The position numbers and the translations under genes are program-made. The notes under the pieces were generated by a model. The model worked only from the letters and a program-made list of their open reading frames with translations. It ran no database searches and was not told the DNA's origin. 28,471 bases of DNA from a virus. Positions 189-22,553 of this stretch are shown in pieces (positions within the stretch are counted from its first letter, which is position 1; every line of letters begins with the position of its first letter). The stretch lies in IMG/VR virus record IMGVR_UViG_3300047994_000119, positions 1 to 28,471 of that record; one strand, given 5' to 3'.

Positions 189-433
189 TTGTGTACTTTG
201 TGTACTTTGTGTACTTTGTGTAAACATTTGTGTCTTACTTTCTTATCACGGCGTCTGTTTTCTAGTTTGTAAAATATAGGCGAAGTTTCCGAAAAAACTG
301 AATGAGAAACTATAAGTCCATTCAACATACCGTGCATATAATCGACACAGTGATTTCTATCATCTACAAATTGTCGTTGAATTGCTATTAAGCCTTCGAG
401 CGTTGTTAGTTTTCTTGTTAGATCTTTAGTCAT
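185..433 (-). CDS. Hypothetical protein with C-terminal VHK repeats
   Basis: An 82-residue basic protein of unknown function. Its start codon lies inside the last codons of the upstream DpdA-like gene (8-nt overlap), and its stop overlaps the next start as ATGA, so it sits in a tight operon. The last 11 residues, HKVHKVHKVHK, are encoded by a 9-bp DNA tandem repeat, so the C-terminal length probably varies between relatives by repeat slippage. No domain is recognised; the reading frame is supported mainly by operon geometry. Confidence 0.55.
   Translation of the reverse strand: MTKDLTRKLTTLEGLIAIQRQFVDDRNHCVDYMHGMLNGLIVSHSVFSETSPIFYKLENRRRDKKVRHKCLHKVHKVHKVHK
188..223. repeat. 9-bp tandem repeat, about four copies
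   Basis: The 9-mer tttgtgtac is repeated head to tail three times, with a fourth copy ending in aa. It encodes the VHK repeats at the C-terminus of the 82-residue protein and abuts the ATGA junction with the following gene. Such repeats are prone to replication slippage. Confidence 0.85.
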
Positions 434-1985
434 CTAAATTGATTAAATCTTCTTTATCAAGACTTGCAAGTTCTTCGCCTGTTATTTCGTGTTCTTCGTT
501 TATTTCTTCTTCTACACCGAATAATGATCCAAATGTGGTAACTTCTTTTTTGTTACCGAAACTTACATAGTCAAGAAATGCTTGATTTTGCCTAATCATA
601 TTATACGGGTCTTTTGTCGATGGGTCAAATAATACCTCAACAAAGTTGTTGAAAAATAATATAGAATTAGGAACAAACTTACTAATATTTGTTTCCTTAG
701 ATTTGTTTCTTAATTGATACCAATCTCTATAATCGATATTTTTTCTTGTTGCGTATTCTATATCAGCAAGTCTATTAATTTCTTGCACTGCTTGTATATG
801 ATTATATACATTATGCGCCATAACTAAAGCATAAGTGGTTGTATCCCAACTTGTTTTACCTTCCTTATTATGCTTATTTAAATCACCCGGGCCCATTACA
901 CACATATCACTAGCATATAACCGTTCCATTATAGGACCCTGAAAGGGCATCGCAATTTTTTTATTCTTTAGACACTTATCATCGATACCTCTACCCATTG
1001 CATAGGTAAGTTGATCAGCCTTAAAGTAATTATAGTTATAAGAAAGTGCATATCCTCCAGCAGCTACAAAAGGTGATGCTGCATCGAAGCTAATATTGAT
1101 ATTCGGATTATCATATTTACGAAGTAAGCGCTCGATAGATGTTAGATAACATGCCCAATCAAGTCGACCTATACCAAGAAAGTGGATCCAATCTTTACCA
1201 TCAAGTAAGCCGTCGTTTCGAAGATCAATTATTCTTTCAAGAACAGTCATCATGTTCTTCATGTTAATACCAGCAAATGCCCACCCTTCTAGTGTGTGAG
1301 ATTTTGGATATCCCATTGCTTCTACTGCTTCTGGAATACTATAAGGAATTACACGTTCATACCATGTTTTAGAATTTGTATTATCGCTGCCGGATAGAAC
1401 ATTTAGAAATTTTGTTGCACCAGGAATACGATTTTTCATAAAGTATTGAAGATTGTATTCTGTAACATCAAGACAGTCCTCAAACTTTGTTAATCCAGTC
1501 TTAGCACTTAGGGGAGGAAGTGCAGCAAAAGCTGGAACATCTAATGTCATCGACCAATCTGCTGTATGCTCGAGATAACGTAAAATTTCTTCTCTTAGTT
1601 TATCTCCGGCGGGTGTTTTAACAGTTGCCCAATCAAGTTTAATAACTCCTGTGGCTACCTGATAGCCACCGCTATCTCCCAATAATATGTTTTTATTCCT
1701 ATTTCTTTTGTGAATCATAGGTTCTCTATCATCGCATTTATCTAACTTTCTTTCGGCGTGTCCTGCACTGTATAATGAATAGGGATAATGGAAATAAGAA
1801 TTATCTGGGTTAAGAAAGTCTAAACCCTGTATTCCTAATTCAAATTTTTCCGGTACTCGTTCTTTAGGTATAAAATTAGTATCTGATAAATCTTTTCCTA
1901 AATGTGTTGTATAAAATCCCGAAATAGCTGGCAAATATTTTGCCCAATTTCCTTCTTTGTGTCTTTTTCCTAAATCAATTGTCAT
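426..1985 (-). CDS. dpdA: DpdA-like DNA guanine transglycosylase (TGT-superfamily)
   Basis: A 519-residue protein with hallmarks of the tRNA-guanine transglycosylase fold. GDSGGYQ near residue 104 matches the TGT substrate-binding DSGGFQ. HFLGIGRL near residue 270 matches the conserved LGxG strand. ISFDAASPF near residue 300 supplies the Asp expected to be the nucleophile. Phage members with this divergent arrangement are usually DpdA enzymes, which exchange guanine in DNA for a 7-deazaguanine such as preQ0 and so protect phage DNA from restriction. The CxCxxC zinc site of tRNA TGTs is not seen, which argues against ordinary tRNA queuosine insertion. No queC, queD, queE or folE lies in the window, so the base precursor would come from the host or another phage region. 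It lies downstream of the replication genes. The family is fairly confident; DNA rather than tRNA as substrate is inferred. Confidence 0.6.
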   Translation of the reverse strand: MTIDLGKRHKEGNWAKYLPAISGFYTTHLGKDLSDTNFIPKERVPEKFELGIQGLDFLNPDNSYFHYPYSLYSAGHAERKLDKCDDREPMIHKRNRNKNILLGDSGGYQVATGVIKLDWATVKTPAGDKLREEILRYLEHTADWSMTLDVPAFAALPPLSAKTGLTKFEDCLDVTEYNLQYFMKNRIPGATKFLNVLSGSDNTNSKTWYERVIPYSIPEAVEAMGYPKSHTLEGWAFAGINMKNMMTVLERIIDLRNDGLLDGKDWIHFLGIGRLDWACYLTSIERLLRKYDNPNINISFDAASPFVAAGGYALSYNYNYFKADQLTYAMGRGIDDKCLKNKKIAMPFQGPIMERLYASDMCVMGPGDLNKHNKEGKTSWDTTTYALVMAHNVYNHIQAVQEINRLADIEYATRKNIDYRDWYQLRNKSKETNISKFVPNSILFFNNFVEVLFDPSTKDPYNMIRQNQAFLDYVSFGNKKEVTTFGSLFGVEEEINEEHEITGEELASLDKEDLINLDD

Positions 1986-3516: not shown

Positions 3517-4665
3517 TCAGAATGCGCTAAAGTCAAACAAAAGTTCGAGGTGAGCATGTTCTTTATTTGTACGAGATAAATCCCAGTTTAGAACACCTAC
3601 AAGATTTTTTACCTTTTGATCTACTATACCAGCCATCATATCTTCACTATCGAATGGTAAGTTTAAGAACCATTCCGGTAAATGAACTTCGTCGACAGGG
3701 TATGCAATACTTGATAATGTGTTCTCACTTGTTTCTTTTAGCTTGCAAACAACAATTTTTTGTCCGTCGACAATACGCATAGAATGTTGATCCATGTGCA
3801 TATCTTTTAATCTATTCCACGCAAGACTTGCTGTAACATGTCCGGGGACATGTAAATTACCTACAATCTGTCCTTTCGATTTAGCTATAGCAGCCAACTC
3901 AATTTTTTCCCGATAATGAGATAACTTATTTACGGCTCGTGGAGTACCTTGCTGCCATGGCTTCATATTTTCAAATTTTTCCTTAAACTTTTTAATTTTT
4001 TCAATAACAAAGTTTTCACCTTTATTACATAAGGTATCCAATAAGATCTCAGATAAAAATTCTTGTACAAACTTAGGAGTATCTGCTCTTTTCAAATCTA
4101 ATCCCATTGCCTTTACTTTACCGGGCTTATCACCTACATCAAGTCTAATACCATCTTTATCAAACATCAAACAAGCATAACGTTTCTTTACAATCCATAA
4201 TCCGCTTTCGGAAACTGTTTCTCGTGAACTAGCTATAACACCAGTTGATCTCTTAATTGGAACATTCAATGTAGTATAAAGAAAATCAGGAAATGTTGCT
4301 GATACTGCCTTAGCAAGTGAATTATAAGTATCAATAATGCTTTCTTTTGTCCATTCTACTTCACCTGCATCAATTTCTTTTCTTAGAACTGGATATGCTG
4401 AGAAGTAGCAGGAATTATGTAGTAAAATATTATTACCAAAGAACCAGGGCTTACTTTGATTTTTCATACCAATATCATAGACATATTCATCTTCTGCCTT
4501 GCAAACTTTTCTTACGGATTTTACCTTTGCCTTATGTAATGATATTTCCTTTTGTGGTTGAAATTTAGTAAGATAGTGCTGTACTTCTTTATATAACTCG
4601 GCAGTATCTTTTAATGGCGATAATATTAATTTCTTTAGGGCGTCTGCTAAATCTTTACTTTCCAT
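3517..4665 (-). CDS. 43: DNA polymerase gp43 C-terminal part with C-intein half
   Basis: A 382-residue protein. Residues 1-84 form a leader plus the C-terminal intein half: block F around EYVYDIG (59-65) and block G ending NNILLHN (78-84), followed by Ser85 as the +1 extein residue. From Ser85 the sequence (SCYFSAYPVL) continues polymerase motif C from the partner protein, then the thumb region. The last residues, LLFDFSAF, resemble the clamp-binding tail of T4-type polymerases. Spliced to the N-terminal protein it would give a polymerase of about 982 residues (T4 gp43 is 898). The start ATG has AAGAG 6 nt upstream and lies 9 nt after the TAA of the partner gene, in the same reading frame. 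Before splicing neither half has a complete active site. Confidence 0.85.
   Translation of the reverse strand: MESKDLADALKKLILSPLKDTAELYKEVQHYLTKFQPQKEISLHKAKVKSVRKVCKAEDEYVYDIGMKNQSKPWFFGNNILLHNSCYFSAYPVLRKEIDAGEVEWTKESIIDTYNSLAKAVSATFPDFLYTTLNVPIKRSTGVIASSRETVSESGLWIVKKRYACLMFDKDGIRLDVGDKPGKVKAMGLDLKRADTPKFVQEFLSEILLDTLCNKGENFVIEKIKKFKEKFENMKPWQQGTPRAVNKLSHYREKIELAAIAKSKGQIVGNLHVPGHVTASLAWNRLKDMHMDQHSMRIVDGQKIVVCKLKETSENTLSSIAYPVDEVHLPEWFLNLPFDSEDMMAGIVDQKVKNLVGVLNWDLSRTNKEHAHLELLFDFSAF
4414..4665 (-). other. Split intein, C-terminal half
   Basis: Residues 1-84 of the polymerase C-terminal protein. The core C-intein is about the last 40 residues, with the penultimate His83, terminal Asn84 and following Ser85 needed for splicing. 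The first ~40 residues are charged and helical and replace the place where an endonuclease would sit in a full intein. Confidence 0.8.
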
Positions 4666-4674
4666 ATAAATCTC

Positions 4675-7110
4675 TTATTCCTTTAAAATTTTAATTTTAT
4701 CTTTATCATCTACTTTTATAGATATTAATATATCCGAATCTAGAATATCTAATGGCTTTACAGAAATAAGTTTACCATCTCGTTCAACCATTACAGAATG
4801 ATCTTCTGTGACGGTAATAATATTTCCCAACTCGTCTTCAATTTCGTACAAATATTTAGATACCTTATGTCGATAGATGTATTCAATGTGTCCTAGGTAC
4901 GGTTCGTCGATTTCATCATTATATGTCATTACCATTAAATCTGGATCATAGGCATATTCTTTATCACCATCATTCCAAAATTCGTTACACCCATTAAAAA
5001 GGTCTTCAACAGTTTGTTGACCTTTTGAAGAATAATGAAGTGTAGAAGAAATTTGACTGTCTGTATCTCCGTACACAATAGATTCTCCGTAATGGTCATA
5101 GTTTCCTGTAATCATTTCATTTGTCTTCGCAGCCATATGCTTTGTAATTGTTCTGCCAGTTAATGTAGTAGATTGACCAAGTCTTTGATCAAAGAACCTA
5201 CTACCAGCATTTAATAATGCACCATAAGCCGAGTTTAAATTAATCTTCTTTACAAGCTGACGTTTATCCCAGAATCCTATAATTCTTTTTAACGCCTTTT
5301 GATCTCTATGAATTGCTTTACCATCTTTTACCATCAGGCTGTGCTGATTCATATATTGAATTACACGCTTCTTAGAACCTTCGTCGATAAGTTCTTTTAA
5401 CTTTTTAGGTTTATATACTTCGGATTCATGATATGGATTTGCTTTTATTTCTACATCAGTAATATCATCATTTGTAAATATATCATTAGGAACTTTTACA
5501 CCTTCGATTTTAGAATTATCTTCTATATCTGTATAATTTGTCATAATACCTTGTAGTATTTTACGCTCATTATACCAACGTGTTAATAGTCCTGGAATAA
5601 CACCATCGATATCTGTTCTAAATATTGTACCATTAGCACTAATACACCATGGCTGTCCACTAAAGATTAAATCACTAAGTTCTTTTCCTGTAACTTCAAA
5701 TTGCTGACCATCCTCCATATCGAGTATTAGTTTATTAGCAATATCTTTATCGTAGAAATCATTCATTTCGAGAACGTGGAATCTATCGTTCCACCAGGAT
5801 GCAAATGTATGTTTGCTACCCATCGCTTCCCACATAGCTATTTCTTCATTTGTTCTATCAAGTCTAATTTGTCCAACAATAGTCTCGGGGCTCATATTCA
5901 GAGCTCTCATAACAGATGGATACAAAGATTTCATATCAGTAGATGCTATCCACTTATGTAATCCTTTTCTTGGAGTGGCTACCCAGCCACCAGCAGCACG
6001 ATTACTTTCGTTTTCTTTACCGTGTTTTTTATCAGGGCAAATCATATTACGATTATGCGCTTCTATAATAACAGCTTGATCGGTAACTGCTACGGCACCC
6101 ATTGTTGTTTGGATAAGAACGCAGTTAGCATGAGCGATAGAATTTGCTAAGTCTACGAATTGTAATTTTTTATCAAGTTTATCTAATAATCGGGTATCTT
6201 GAATATTATATTCTAAAAACTTCTTGAAATCATCATTATACAATTCGTCCAAAGTACCTTCGTACTCGACTTTTGTTTCATTAAGTTCAATTTCTGCAAT
6301 AGAGTTTAACTTATAACTATGACGTTCTTCGTAGTTATATTTCTTATAAAGTTCGAGATAATCTACGTGTACCCGACCAATCAGATCGTATGTAGATTCA
6401 GTCTTACCGCCGCGTTCAATTTCACGAATCCTTGGTTGTTGATCCCAAAGGCACATTTTTCTTGCTTCTTGTTTTCCCAGTACTTTTTTAATTCTATTTA
6501 CAATATAAGGAATATCATAAAAAGAACTATTCCATCCACTGAGTATATCTGCATCTTCGATAACATCCATAAAAGCTTCGAGCATTTCTCCTTCTTTATT
6601 AAAGAGAACTACATTGCCGACTTCATCAGCGATAGCTTGAGCTTCTTTCCACGATAATGTGTCTGGTGGCACAGCTAGACAGATAATTTCATCAAGCCAT
6701 TGTAGATGCACGGAAATAGAAGTAATCATATTATCAGCATCTGCAGGATCTGACCAACCTGATTCTTTATCAAAACTAGTTTCGATATCGAAAAAAGCAA
6801 CATTAAGTACAGGTGCATCAACATGCTGGTAATTTTGTGCTAAACAACGAAAAATAGGATCAACATCTGTTTCCCATTTTTTTACATTACCCGATAAGGT
6901 CTTTAGAAGTTTTTGTTTTTCTGTATAGGTACGTGGCGAGATTTTCTTTACAGAATCACCGTAAATAGTCTTATGTGTACCTCTCGGATCTGATATATAA
7001 AAATGAAAGTCAGGTTGAAATTCTCGGTAAACTCTCTTGCCGTTTACTCTTTCTACTACCTTGATTGTTTCTGCTTCGCCATTTTTTTTAAAATAGGAAT
7101 CTACGTACAT
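4675..7110 (-). CDS. 43: DNA polymerase gp43 N-terminal part with N-intein half
   Basis: An 811-residue family-B replicative DNA polymerase fragment. Exonuclease motifs: DIE at 108-110 (Exo I), N194/D199 in WNSSFYD (Exo II), Y301/D305 in YNIQD (Exo III). Polymerase motif A is DMKSLYPS (392-399), motif B is KKINLNSAYG (621-630), and motif C begins YGDTD at 680-684. At Ser685 the sequence turns into an intein: about 127 residues with a block-B-like NIITVTEDH, ending at a TAA. The remaining polymerase is encoded by the next gene. The insertion point is the same YGDTD/S site used by archaeal Pol inteins, including the split PolB of Nanoarchaeum. It follows the DsbA-like gene directly, under the promoter at 7404-7432. 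Proofreading polymerase activity is expected only after trans-splicing. Confidence 0.9.
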   Translation of the reverse strand: MYVDSYFKKNGEAETIKVVERVNGKRVYREFQPDFHFYISDPRGTHKTIYGDSVKKISPRTYTEKQKLLKTLSGNVKKWETDVDPIFRCLAQNYQHVDAPVLNVAFFDIETSFDKESGWSDPADADNMITSISVHLQWLDEIICLAVPPDTLSWKEAQAIADEVGNVVLFNKEGEMLEAFMDVIEDADILSGWNSSFYDIPYIVNRIKKVLGKQEARKMCLWDQQPRIREIERGGKTESTYDLIGRVHVDYLELYKKYNYEERHSYKLNSIAEIELNETKVEYEGTLDELYNDDFKKFLEYNIQDTRLLDKLDKKLQFVDLANSIAHANCVLIQTTMGAVAVTDQAVIIEAHNRNMICPDKKHGKENESNRAAGGWVATPRKGLHKWIASTDMKSLYPSVMRALNMSPETIVGQIRLDRTNEEIAMWEAMGSKHTFASWWNDRFHVLEMNDFYDKDIANKLILDMEDGQQFEVTGKELSDLIFSGQPWCISANGTIFRTDIDGVIPGLLTRWYNERKILQGIMTNYTDIEDNSKIEGVKVPNDIFTNDDITDVEIKANPYHESEVYKPKKLKELIDEGSKKRVIQYMNQHSLMVKDGKAIHRDQKALKRIIGFWDKRQLVKKINLNSAYGALLNAGSRFFDQRLGQSTTLTGRTITKHMAAKTNEMITGNYDHYGESIVYGDTDSQISSTLHYSSKGQQTVEDLFNGCNEFWNDGDKEYAYDPDLMVMTYNDEIDEPYLGHIEYIYRHKVSKYLYEIEDELGNIITVTEDHSVMVERDGKLISVKPLDILDSDILISIKVDDKDKIKILKE
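4678..5058 (-). other. Split intein, N-terminal half (Pol motif C site)
   Basis: Residues 685-811 of the polymerase N-terminal protein. Ser1 follows YGDTD. A segment with LFN then YAYDPDL resembles the layout of the Nanoarchaeum PolB N-intein, from memory. Block B carries TVTEDH with the expected Thr and His. No LAGLIDADG or HNH domain is present, so it is a mini split intein. Confidence 0.8.
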
Positions 7111-19455: not shown

Positions 19456-20030
19456 ACTTGTTCCTCTGGCTCAGGTGGCTGTTGTTCGTCTCCTCCCTGA
19501 CCTTCCATACTTGTATTAACATCTTGCTGATCTTCTTGTGGCTGCTGCTCTTCGTCGAAAGCATCTGCAAGATCTGCGTTGGTTTGTTGTATATCTTGTT
19601 GAATGACATCATCGATTTGTTCTAATCCACGATTTATATATTTTAAAGGTAGCTCGATTGTGACTAACCAAATCTCATGTTCAGCCATCTTTGCTCTCTT
19701 AGACTCGGGATCTCTCCAATCCTGTGGACCTGTGACTTTTACTGGCTTCTTAAATATACCTTTTCTAAAGTTTACTTTAGCTCCTAATTTTGTTAGTCGT
19801 AGTCCGCCATTTGGATCAGGCATCATAGAGTAAGGATACATCCAAACTGTTTTATACCAATAACGTTTAATTTCTGGACCTTCTACAAGTTCACCAAGTA
19901 TCCAATTTTTGTAAGCAAATACTTCAGCATTGTCTAAAGTTCTTTCAAACTCGAGAAGGGTGTCCAGAATGGTGTCTCCCTTTGATATTGCTACTAAAGT
20001 TTTTTTTATGGATTCTAAATCAGTAGACAT
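19452..20030 (-). CDS. Conserved phage protein, acidic Gln-rich tail (192 aa)
   Basis: Starts at the ATG at 20030, which has AAGGA 6 nt upstream; an upstream ATG at 20051 falls inside the HNH gene without a ribosome site. The first ~135 residues form an aromatic-rich domain (AYKNWILGELVEGPEIKRYW; YKTVWMYPYSMMPDPNGG). The last ~55 are a low-complexity Gln/Glu/Asp tail. It overlaps the 251-residue gene by 4 nt. Function unknown; pairing with a probable virion protein suggests a structural or assembly role. Confidence 0.7.
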   Translation of the reverse strand: MSTDLESIKKTLVAISKGDTILDTLLEFERTLDNAEVFAYKNWILGELVEGPEIKRYWYKTVWMYPYSMMPDPNGGLRLTKLGAKVNFRKGIFKKPVKVTGPQDWRDPESKRAKMAEHEIWLVTIELPLKYINRGLEQIDDVIQQDIQQTNADLADAFDEEQQPQEDQQDVNTSMEGQGGDEQQPPEPEEQV

Positions 20031-20544
20031 ATTTTTCCTTACAATTCTCAAAATGATATTTTACCATCGATCCACCAGCACCAATTTTCGAACAATAAGG
20101 ACATTCAACTGGGATTATTTTTCTTCCCTTATGAGGATTTGCCTTTCCCTTGTTTGCTAATCCTATTTTTATCTTTGTTGATTCTTTACAAGGTCTTTTT
20201 CCAGCTTCGGAAATTAGCAACTTTGTTTCATCAGAGAATATTTGTTGTTTCATCGCTTCGGAAAATTTTCTCCTTAGCCAACCGAACATCTTATTATTTC
20301 TAACAACATTTCCACCAGAGACCGTCATCATCTTTACTGCCAATACAAGATATCTATTTTCCGGATACATCTTCACTAATAACTGATGTGCAACATAATG
20401 TTCTTCAGGAGTCAATCTAACAATATTTTCTTTATTATTTCCACCCATACATTTTGGAATAATATGATGTCTTTCATATCCTTCGTCGATATTTCGAGTT
20501 TTAGCTCGTTCTATCAACCGATTATAATGCATCTTGTAATTCAT
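20020..20544 (-). CDS. Free-standing HNH homing endonuclease
   Basis: A 174-residue endonuclease from the ATG at 20544 (GAGGG upstream; the frame extends further without support). The HNH core is RHHIIPKCMGGNNKENIVRL followed by EEHYVAH. Next come NUMOD3-like DNA-binding helices (SDETKLLISEAGK, ESTKIKIGLANKGK) and a C-terminal zinc knuckle CPYCSKIG...HFENC. Such enzymes cut alleles lacking the gene and spread by repair. A late-promoter-like box lies 17 nt upstream, and its last codons contain the ribosome site and start of the next gene, as if it had inserted between that gene and its promoter. Confidence 0.88.
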   Translation of the reverse strand: MNYKMHYNRLIERAKTRNIDEGYERHHIIPKCMGGNNKENIVRLTPEEHYVAHQLLVKMYPENRYLVLAVKMMTVSGGNVVRNNKMFGWLRRKFSEAMKQQIFSDETKLLISEAGKRPCKESTKIKIGLANKGKANPHKGRKIIPVECPYCSKIGAGGSMVKYHFENCKEKYVY

Positions 20545-20561
20545 TTTTGCCCTCTTTTGAT

Positions 20562-20569
20562 TATTTATC
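20562..20569 (-). promoter_or_regulatory. T4-type late promoter motif (GATAAATA)
   Basis: GATAAATA on the minus strand, 17 nt before the HNH start. It would transcribe the endonuclease and the following virion-type genes, and may originally have belonged to the latter. Confidence 0.55.
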
Positions 20570-20646
20570 TGTATCTGGTTACTTTTTGAAAGATTTGAAA
20601 ATAACCATAGGTATAACACTCTATATTAACTATATCAGATAAGTAA

Positions 20647-20674
20647 ATGGTATGCACAATACACGCGATACCAT
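20647..20674. promoter_or_regulatory. Inverted repeat in the phoH leader
   Basis: ATGGTAT and ATACCAT are perfect 7-bp arms around a 14-nt loop in the phoH leader, about 80 nt before the TTG start. It could be an operator or an RNA hairpin. No convincing -35/-10 pair was found nearby. Confidence 0.35.
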
Positions 20675-20753
20675 TATCGTCGTCTCTCAGGATGGGCAGT
20701 CCTTGTCCGATCCCCCTTCACACCAAAATAAATCTATCAACAGGAGTACAACC

Positions 20754-22553
20754 TTGAGCAAAAATCGTAAAATGACAGCGAAATCGCCGTCGCAATCTCG
20801 TCACACCCGTACATACGATGAACAATCAACTAATGTCGTTAAATTAGGTAATCGTAATTATAAAAAAGTCGAGATGATTCCACGTAATACAGCACAGGAA
20901 GAATACGTAGAAGCTTTGCTTGAAAAAAGAATGGTCTTCGCTGTGGGTCCTGCCGGAACAGGTAAAGCACAACCACTTCATTCTAAAATAAAGATACCAA
21001 ATGGATGGACTACAATGAATGATATTAAAGTAGGAGATAAGGTATCTACTCCAAACGGAGGGACTGCTAATGTTATCGGAATTTATCCGCAGGGTAAAAA
21101 AGAAATTTACACAATTACCTTCACTGACGGAAGAACTGCAGAGTGTTGTAAAGAACATCTATGGGAAGTATTTTATCCAGATAATTGGGGAGATAATTCG
21201 AAAATATTAAGTCTTGACGATATTATAAAGTTACAGAATAAATTTAGGAAAAAATTACAAGTTAGATTAATTAATCATGAAAATATAGATGATATTAATT
21301 TACCAATAGATCCATATTTACTCGGATGTCTACTCGGTGATGGCAATATTTCAATAAAAGGTAGAATTAGCTTTAGTTCATCAGATGTTACTATTGTGGA
21401 AAAATTAAACAAAATAATACCAGATGGCGAATTTATTCATAAATCCAATTATGATTATGTATTTAAATCCGGTGGAAAAGGATCTGGAAACAAACTAAAC
21501 AAATTTGGATCGAGATTACGAGATGAATTAAGTAATTTAAATTTATTTGGAACAAAATCTAATAACAAATTTATTCCAGAAATATATCTTAATTCATCTA
21601 AGGAACAGAAAATAAAGATGTTACAGGGATTATTAGATACAGATGGATATGCTGATAAGAAAAATAACGGATTATACTTTACGTCAGTAAGTAAAATTAT
21701 GGCTGAACAAGTACAATACCTGGTACGATCTATCGGCGGTACTGCTAAGATAACATCAAAGACACCATCATTTACATATAAAGGTATAAAGAAATATGGA
21801 CAAGTAGCCTATGATGTGAAAATTGACTATAATTGTAAAACTGATCTTGTAAGCCTAGATAGAAAGAAACAATGTCTAAAAAATAATGGACAATACATCA
21901 AAAACAATCGTATAGGAATTTCGAAGATTGAATATACATCTATTGCTGAGGCACAATGTATTATGATTGATTCTCCAGATCATCTATACATTACCGATAA
22001 TTTTGTCGTAACTCATAATACACTCTTAGCAGTTCTTCGAGCCATTAAGGCACTAAGAGAACAAGAGATTTCAAAGATTATTCTAACTCGCCCAGCAGTT
22101 AGTGTAGACGAAAAGCATGGATTTTTGCCAGGTGACCTAAATGCAAAAATGGAACCATGGACAAGACCAATCTTTGACGTATTTGAAGAATATTATGGCT
22201 TGCAGGAAACAAAGAGAATGCTAGATGAAGGTACAATCGAGATCGCCCCGCTTGGATTTATGCGTGGTAGAACATTCAAGTATTCATACATCATTGCTGA
22301 CGAAATGCAAAATGCTACACCAGATCAGACAAAAATGTTATTGACACGTATTGGTGACGGTAGCAGCATGGTCATCACAGGTGACCTAAAACAACACGAT
22401 CGTGGGTTTGATAAAAATGGTCTCAAGGATTTTCTTGAGAGACTTGCTAAAAATAATACTTGTTCTATGGCAGTCTGCACATTTAGACGTGAACATATTG
22501 AACGTGATCCGTTAGTAGCCGAAGTTCTTAAGATATACGGAGAAGACGAATAA
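20754..22553 (+). CDS. phoH: PhoH-like ATPase interrupted by an intein
   Basis: PhoH-family P-loop ATPase, common in marine and T4-like phages; its cellular role is uncertain (RNA-related or phosphate-stress ATPase). The start is taken as TTG at 20754 with CAGGAG 7 nt upstream; an upstream ATG at 20652 lacks a ribosome site. The extein gives GPAGTGK before and TLLAVLRAIKAL after the intein, rebuilding Walker A GPAGTGKT on splicing. Walker B YIIADEMQN and the conserved GDLKQHDR follow. Removing the 351-residue intein leaves about 248 residues, the usual phage PhoH size. It is the only clear plus-strand gene, ending at a terminator shared with the convergent membrane-protein gene. Without splicing the P-loop is broken and the ATPase should be inactive. 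Confidence 0.92.
   Translation: MSKNRKMTAKSPSQSRHTRTYDEQSTNVVKLGNRNYKKVEMIPRNTAQEEYVEALLEKRMVFAVGPAGTGKAQPLHSKIKIPNGWTTMNDIKVGDKVSTPNGGTANVIGIYPQGKKEIYTITFTDGRTAECCKEHLWEVFYPDNWGDNSKILSLDDIIKLQNKFRKKLQVRLINHENIDDINLPIDPYLLGCLLGDGNISIKGRISFSSSDVTIVEKLNKIIPDGEFIHKSNYDYVFKSGGKGSGNKLNKFGSRLRDELSNLNLFGTKSNNKFIPEIYLNSSKEQKIKMLQGLLDTDGYADKKNNGLYFTSVSKIMAEQVQYLVRSIGGTAKITSKTPSFTYKGIKKYGQVAYDVKIDYNCKTDLVSLDRKKQCLKNNGQYIKNNRIGISKIEYTSIAEAQCIMIDSPDHLYITDNFVVTHNTLLAVLRAIKALREQEISKIILTRPAVSVDEKHGFLPGDLNAKMEPWTRPIFDVFEEYYGLQETKRMLDEGTIEIAPLGFMRGRTFKYSYIIADEMQNATPDQTKMLLTRIGDGSSMVITGDLKQHDRGFDKNGLKDFLERLAKNNTCSMAVCTFRREHIERDPLVAEVLKIYGEDE
20967..22019 (+). other. Class 3 intein with LAGLIDADG endonuclease in PhoH
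   Basis: A 351-residue in-frame intein between GTGK and TLLA. Residue 1 is Ala instead of Cys or Ser. The class 3 signature is visible: Trp66 after the block B His (EHLW), Cys331 in block F (QCIMIDSPDHLY), and Thr as the +1 residue after VVTHN. Two LAGLIDADG helices, YLLGCLLGDG (117-126) and MLQGLLDTDG (218-227), show a complete homing endonuclease. Class 3 inteins splice through the block F Cys rather than residue 1. Confidence 0.9.

What the first reader, a model, noticed from the sequence alone, without database searches (positions are those of the whole stretch)
4663..4680. The two polymerase halves differ by one in-frame TAA
4665 is in the same frame as the start at 7110. The codons read GAA TAA GAG ATT TAT ATG, so one stop plus three codons separates N- and C-intein. 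This looks like a very young fracture of a contiguous intein of about 215 residues, with reinitiation at an ATG preceded by AAGAG. Alternatives are a stop readthrough or a sequence error. Other genes here (gp45, phoH) use TAA as a true stop, so wholesale recoding is unlikely.
Basis: seen in the sequence. Interest (0 to 1): 0.7.

Follow-up and report, generated by a model that had tools for sequence, protein, structure and literature searches.

The report
Split-intein DNA polymerase after endonuclease loss
A jumbo-phage DNA polymerase is encoded in two adjacent pieces that should be spliced together as proteins; the single stop codon between them is most likely the scar left when a 'homing' endonuclease gene was deleted from an old split, not a fresh break in a whole gene.

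Summary
On the minus strand the N-half of a T4-like family B polymerase (811 aa, 7110-4675) ends at TAA. GAG ATT TAT follows, then the ATG of the C-half (382 aa, 4665-3517) in the same frame. The halves carry a Ser-type split intein at motif C (YGDTD|S...HN|SCYFS).

'Very young fracture of a contiguous intein' is not supported. The three closest intein relatives are all split at the same place and share the C-half start Met: L008 and L075 have a 336-aa EDxHD/Vsr-like homing endonuclease gene (HEG) between the halves, and L063 has only that gene's two ends. Of 73 distinct loci, 48 are split+HEG, 17 split without intact HEG (most with HEG remnants), 1 truncated, 7 contiguous. On the intein tree, re-fusion alone needs 7 events for any root; fracture alone needs 20-29. 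The HEG-less state arose many times. The window is best read as a HEG-deleted fractured gene whose halves fell into the same frame (6 of 17 HEG-less splits do, as chance predicts).

The system is known (phages MIJ3 and Aes508; Aes123 PolB1 intein). What is new is the loss and re-fusion series.

The parts
5059..7110 (-). N-extein: exonuclease domain and palm of T4-like family B DNA polymerase, up to YGDTD (684 aa)
   Evidence: Pfam DNA_pol_B_exo1 and DNA_pol_B, phrog_262 5e-142; alignment with intein-less L010
4702..5058 (-). IntN, the part homologous to relatives (119 aa, Ser1 to VDDK)
   Evidence: Pfam Intein_splicing 1e-5; TIGR01445
4678..4701 (-). Eight-codon tail DKIKILKE with no counterpart in L008 or L075; scar sequence
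   Evidence: origin not resolved
4675..4677 (-). TAA stop of the N-half
4666..4674 (-). Nine-nucleotide spacer GAGATTTAT with weak SD-like AAGAG (4670-4674 plus preceding bases)
4549..4665 (-). C-half start and 39-aa linker MESKDLADALKKL..., conserved from the Met in L008, L063 and L075
4414..4548 (-). IntC core (45 aa) ending ILLHN
3517..4413 (-). C-extein from SCYFS to the end of the polymerase (298 aa) plus stop TGA
   Evidence: phrog_1918 7e-44 and phrog_262 1e-41; contiguous in L010

Best explanation
This is a 'fractured' phage polymerase gene. The two halves are translated separately, the TAA ending the N-half and the ATG 9 nt downstream starting the C-half, probably by coupled reinitiation (inferred). 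IntN and IntC assemble a HINT domain and ligate YGDTD to SCYFS through Ser nucleophiles, restoring motif C (inferred from conserved residues, fold and biochemically tested relatives). Historically the gap held an EDxHD/Vsr-like homing endonuclease gene whose 3' end overlapped the C-half start. That gene was deleted, leaving the halves abutting and by chance in the same frame, one stop codon short of a contiguous mini-intein.
For: Nearest intein relatives: L008 and L075 are split with a 336-aa HEG whose end overlaps the C-half ATG by 11 nt; L063 keeps only the HEG's first about 23 and last about 10 codons. 48 of 73 loci are split+HEG. HEG-less splits make 17 separate changes on the intein tree, and tblastn finds HEG remnants in most of them, E from 2e-41 to 0.002. 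HEG and intein distances correlate, Mantel r 0.75 against a null maximum of 0.26, so HEGs are mostly co-inherited. Re-fusion only needs 7 events, fracture only 20-29, over all rootings. IntN, linker, IntC and exteins all show dN well below dS. Catalytic positions are conserved. The read-through model is HINT with pLDDT above 90 outside the junction and linker; best PDB match is 9hth, Aes123 PolB1 split intein, TM 0.81-0.83 by target length. Named phages with N-intein / endonuclease ORF / C-intein at this site: MIJ3, Aes508, PTm1.
Against: The window's own 48-nt junction has no statistically convincing HEG remnant (p 0.02-0.45 in shuffles; rank 2-6 of 23 starts in the ATG-anchored control), so HEG loss in this lineage rests on relatives and the tree. 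In the polymerase (extein) tree the window's nearest complete neighbour L010 has no intein, and L008, L063 and L075 lie in other subclades, so the intein has moved horizontally and the HEG could have been lost in another genome. Splicing and translation were not tested. Only one record of this junction was seen.
Confidence: 0.83

Rival explanations
1. One reading: a contiguous intein of about 215 residues was recently broken by a point mutation to TAA, and the C-half is now made by reinitiation at a former internal Met.
For: One in-frame stop, halves in one frame; contiguous inteins exist at this site (L004, L082, L084, L095, L107, L142, L122); the read-through product folds as HINT.
Against: Closest inteins are split with the C-half start Met conserved in another frame; in the fracture-only model 20-29 independent fractures are needed against 7 re-fusions; the 8 codons before the TAA are not conserved intein sequence; a shared frame has the chance frequency.
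Confidence: 0.07
2. The halves were re-fused by HEG deletion into a contiguous cis mini-intein, and the TAA is a sequencing or assembly error.
For: Re-fused cis forms with a fossil C-half Met are found (L095, L084); only one record of the window exists.
Against: A single-base error at exactly this place is a low prior; 13 of the 24 ORFs checked end in TAA; L087 shows the same one-stop geometry independently.
Confidence: 0.04
3. The TAA is read through at some level, so both a cis precursor and separate halves are made; both would give the same spliced polymerase.
For: Same frame; the junction is predicted disordered (119-133), so read-through would not hinder folding.
Against: TAAG context and no suppressor tRNA in the window (the rest of the genome is not held); the C-half has its own conserved start; relatives in other frames cannot do this.
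Confidence: 0.05
4. The locus is decayed: the polymerase is inactive and another copy serves.
For: No reads, expression data or whole genome are available; only 28 kb is held.
Against: Purifying selection on every segment; intact catalytic residues.
Confidence: 0.01

Closest known systems
MIJ3 / PA5oct-type (Wroclawvirus) split PolB with split intein and homing endonuclease (PMC6892783)
   Same: Same T4-like jumbo-phage polymerase, same YGDTD|S site, same split point; N-half 53% identical
   Different: A 561-aa endonuclease gene lies between the halves there; the window has none and the halves abut in one frame
Aes123/Aes508 PolB1 cysteine-less split intein (PDB 9HTH; PMC11923092)
   Same: Ser1, PolB, typical split site, VSR-like ORF between the halves in Aes508; closest solved structure by sequence and by fold
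   Different: About 20% identity in the Foldseek alignment; the window intein has non-catalytic cysteines, a 39-aa C-linker and no HEG
'Fractured genes' of Dassa et al. 2009 (NAR 37:2560; text not held, known from citations and memory)
   Same: Split intein halves flanking a free-standing endonuclease of a Vsr-like family is the form of the window's relatives
   Different: The window is the HEG-deleted form of that arrangement
Salicola phage SCTP-2 PolB mini-intein
   Same: Same motif-C region, homologous splicing domain
   Different: Contiguous cis intein with a short linker, inserted two codons earlier (YGD|S..N|TDS)
Split PolB inteins of Nanoarchaeum equitans and Methanothermobacter (from memory, not compared here)
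   Same: Natural split inteins in family B polymerases near motif C
   Different: As recalled, the halves lie far apart in the genome and the hosts are archaea

Membership tests
Intein (HINT, class 1, Ser-type) | N-terminal nucleophile, block B TxxH, C-terminal HN, nucleophile at +1 | tested here: met
   Ser1, TEDH, ILLHN, +1 Ser; aligned with relatives
Intein (HINT, class 1, Ser-type) | HINT fold | tested here: met
   Read-through model: block means above 90 for residues 1-110 and 171-215; 9hth_B E 7e-13, TM 0.81 by target
Intein (HINT, class 1, Ser-type) | Removal restores a conserved host protein | tested here: met
   YGDTD + SCYFS equals contiguous intein-less relatives such as L010 with zero gap
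Naturally split intein | Two separately initiated ORFs, split at the canonical endonuclease site between the N-terminal blocks and block F | tested here: met
   Stop plus own ATG; C-half conserved from its Met in three relatives where it lies in another frame than the N-half
Naturally split intein | Trans-splicing activity | not testable with these tools
   Shown in the literature for relatives (Aes123, LCGC14), not for this one
Fractured gene (split intein + free-standing EDxHD HEG) | Endonuclease gene between the halves | tested here: not met
   9-nt gap; no homologue of the L008 HEG elsewhere in the window. It appears to descend from this arrangement but no longer has it
Fractured gene (split intein + free-standing EDxHD HEG) | The endonuclease of the relatives is EDxHD/Vsr-like | tested here: met
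   Invariant E, D, WH, D columns; profile hits 1vsr 0.0024 and 3r3p 'mobile intron protein' 0.0041

The most novel reading that the evidence does not exclude
Polymerase split inteins run through a reversible cycle: a free-standing EDxHD endonuclease sits in the split and spreads it; the endonuclease gene is lost repeatedly by deletion; some deletions fuse the halves back into a contiguous mini-intein that can keep the C-half's start codon as a fossil. The window is caught one stop codon before re-fusion. Natural splitting of inteins would then not be a one-way street.
Probability: 0.65. Interest if true: 0.62.

Novelty: new member of a known kind. Interest (0 to 1): 0.5.

Why it matters
How natural split inteins arise, and whether splitting is reversible, has rested on few cases. 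Here one insertion site offers dozens of loci in every state: split with HEG, HEG remnant, clean abutting halves, re-fused cis with a fossil start codon, and no intein. That makes direction and mechanism testable by comparison and at the bench. The window junction is a natural construct one codon from a cis intein. It also corrects a tempting misreading: one in-frame stop looks like a fresh nonsense mutation but is most likely a deletion scar.

Tried and rejected
HEG remnant in the window's own junction: local alignment to HEG tails gave p 0.02 (L075), 0.16 (L063) and 0.45 (L008), and to HEG upstream regions p 0.78-0.86; an ATG-anchored comparison against 23 gene starts of the same window ranked it 2nd to 6th. 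The resemblance of DKIKILKE to the L075 HEG tail is therefore not claimed. tblastn of the L008 HEG against the whole window found nothing convincing. Degenerate DNA patterns for the C-half start found no further viral contigs of this clade; the two hits in bacterial genomes (L223, L224) have no polymerase or intein homology, so they are chance. Recoding of TAA: rejected. No Rfam family in the window. Dassa 2009 and Aranko 2014 are not in the library. In the extein tree L007 is mislabelled 'none' (it is split+HEG, dropped as a duplicate of L002), and L009 and L044 end before the site, so the count of 11 changes of intein presence there is approximate.

Full report
Observation. The minus strand reads GAA TAA GAG ATT TAT ATG at 4680-4663 and the ATG at 4665 is in frame with the start at 7110. 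The upstream ORF (811 aa) carries a family B exonuclease domain, palm and an intein N-region; the downstream ORF (382 aa) carries an intein C-region and the rest of the polymerase. Joining residues 1-684 of the first to residue 85 onward of the second restores YGDTD-SCYFS, and intein-less relatives such as L010 (85% and 88% identical) are contiguous exactly there.

What the relatives show. The window's polymerase belongs to a T4-like jumbo-phage group. Pseudomonas phages MIJ3 and Paride have the same split with a 561-aa homing endonuclease gene between the halves, already published for MIJ3 (PMC6892783). Aeromonas phage Aes508 and Tenacibaculum phage PTm1 are annotated with a VSR-like endonuclease between N-intein and C-intein polymerase genes. 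In IMG/VR the closest intein-bearing loci are L008 and L075, split with a 336-aa endonuclease gene, and L063, which keeps a 34-codon fusion of that gene's two ends: MIGFRKESPYIGKFGEDVGKQKY from the start and IENLKGFWNEK from the end. All share the C-half from its methionine (M[KE]SKDLADALK), in a frame different from the N-half in these three.

Survey. Profiles of IntN and IntC were searched in all fetched loci; 73 distinct inteins were classified: 48 split with an endonuclease-sized ORF (250 aa or more), 17 split without one, 1 with a truncated one, 7 contiguous. Six of the 17 HEG-less splits have both halves in one frame, the third expected by chance; two (window, L087) have exactly one stop. 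Searching the 49 endonuclease proteins against the junctions found remnants, usually of the last 15-60 codons, in most of the 17 (for example L089 2e-41, L137 4e-37, L152 4e-24, L135 8e-21, L063 2e-10; L087 weak at 0.002; window and L209 not convincing). Retention of the tail is expected, because the endonuclease stop overlaps the C-half start in 37 of 40 loci examined, so the C-half's initiation region lies inside it (inference).

Direction. On the intein tree (73 rows, 155 columns) the window groups with L008, L063 and L075 (98/94), HEG-less splits are 17 separate changes and contiguous forms 7. If only re-fusion is allowed, 7 events suffice for every root; if only fracture is allowed, 20-29 are needed. 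HEG loss alone needs 23-24 events (cis forms counted as HEG-less), gain alone 34-37. Endonuclease and intein distances correlate (r 0.75, null maximum 0.26), so the endonuclease mostly travels with its intein. Two pairs show re-fusion closely. Contiguous L095 keeps the start Met and linker MKKEFTNILNA of split L100. Contiguous L084 (IntN 97% nt identical to split+HEG L086) joins IntN to the C-half's ATGAATGAAATC with a few bases of the endonuclease tail, across a GAT that both sides share. L084 and L086 exteins are only 59-69% nt identical, so the intein has also moved between phages. In the polymerase tree the window, L008, L063 and L075 sit in different subclades among intein-less polymerases.

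The window itself. Relative to L008 and L075, which stop right after a short xDK end, the window has lost that stop and runs 8 further codons to the TAA. The TAA is therefore new sequence at a deletion or rearrangement scar, not a point mutation inside a conserved intein. Which deletion made it cannot be read from the junction: similarity to endonuclease tails is not above suitable controls. All coding segments, including IntN, linker and IntC, have dN 0.06-0.28 against dS of 0.84 or more in all pairs, often saturated, so both halves are maintained.

Mechanism. Shown: gene anatomy, conserved catalytic residues, HINT fold of the joined segments with the junction disordered (residues 119-133, pLDDT under 50), best match 9HTH. 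Inferred: coupled translation, association of the two fragments, Ser-based trans-splicing, restoration of motif C. Trans-splicing has been measured for the related Aes123 and LCGC14 PolB split inteins (PMC11923092, PMC12707363).

Limits. The survey is capped at the best 80 loci per search and by pattern seeding; parsimony counts depend on that sample; one record represents the window; 'HEG-less' means no intact ORF in the gap, not absence of the gene elsewhere in that phage; the endonuclease label for the 48 gap ORFs rests on size, position and similarity of the nine aligned, not on a test of each.

Noticed in passing
window 20652-22553 (+): phoH-like gene carries a contiguous intein with a LAGLIDADG_3 domain inserted after the Walker A motif GPAGTGK (Pfam PhoH 7e-63, LAGLIDADG_3 9e-12).
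   Followed up: partly
window 20020-20619 (-): Free-standing HNH/NUMOD3-type homing endonuclease ORF (NUMOD3 1e-4; RHHIIPKCMGG motif) next to the phoH gene: a third mobile-element trace in 28 kb.
   Followed up: partly
L003, L004, L057, L119, L128, L133 and others: Two insertion registers at motif C: YGD|S...N|TDS in one set of inteins and YGDTD|S...N|S in the other (window included), two codons apart, with homologous inteins.
   Followed up: no
L002, L077, L121, L124, L125, L143, L145, L192: In these eight loci the gap holds a larger endonuclease-type ORF (about 560-580 aa; DUF723 in L002) instead of the 290-385 aa one, suggesting endonuclease replacement at the same split.
   Followed up: no
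L057 and L062: Nearly identical polymerases (0.025 substitutions per site), one with split intein plus HEG and one with no intein: a very recent gain or precise loss.
   Followed up: no
L084 and L086: Intein halves 90-97% identical in DNA while exteins are 59-69% identical, one contiguous and one split with HEG: recent horizontal transfer.
   Followed up: partly
window 426-1985 (-): 519-aa ORF that resembles, from memory, phage DpdA-like tRNA-guanine/7-deazaguanine transglycosylases; not searched.
   Followed up: no
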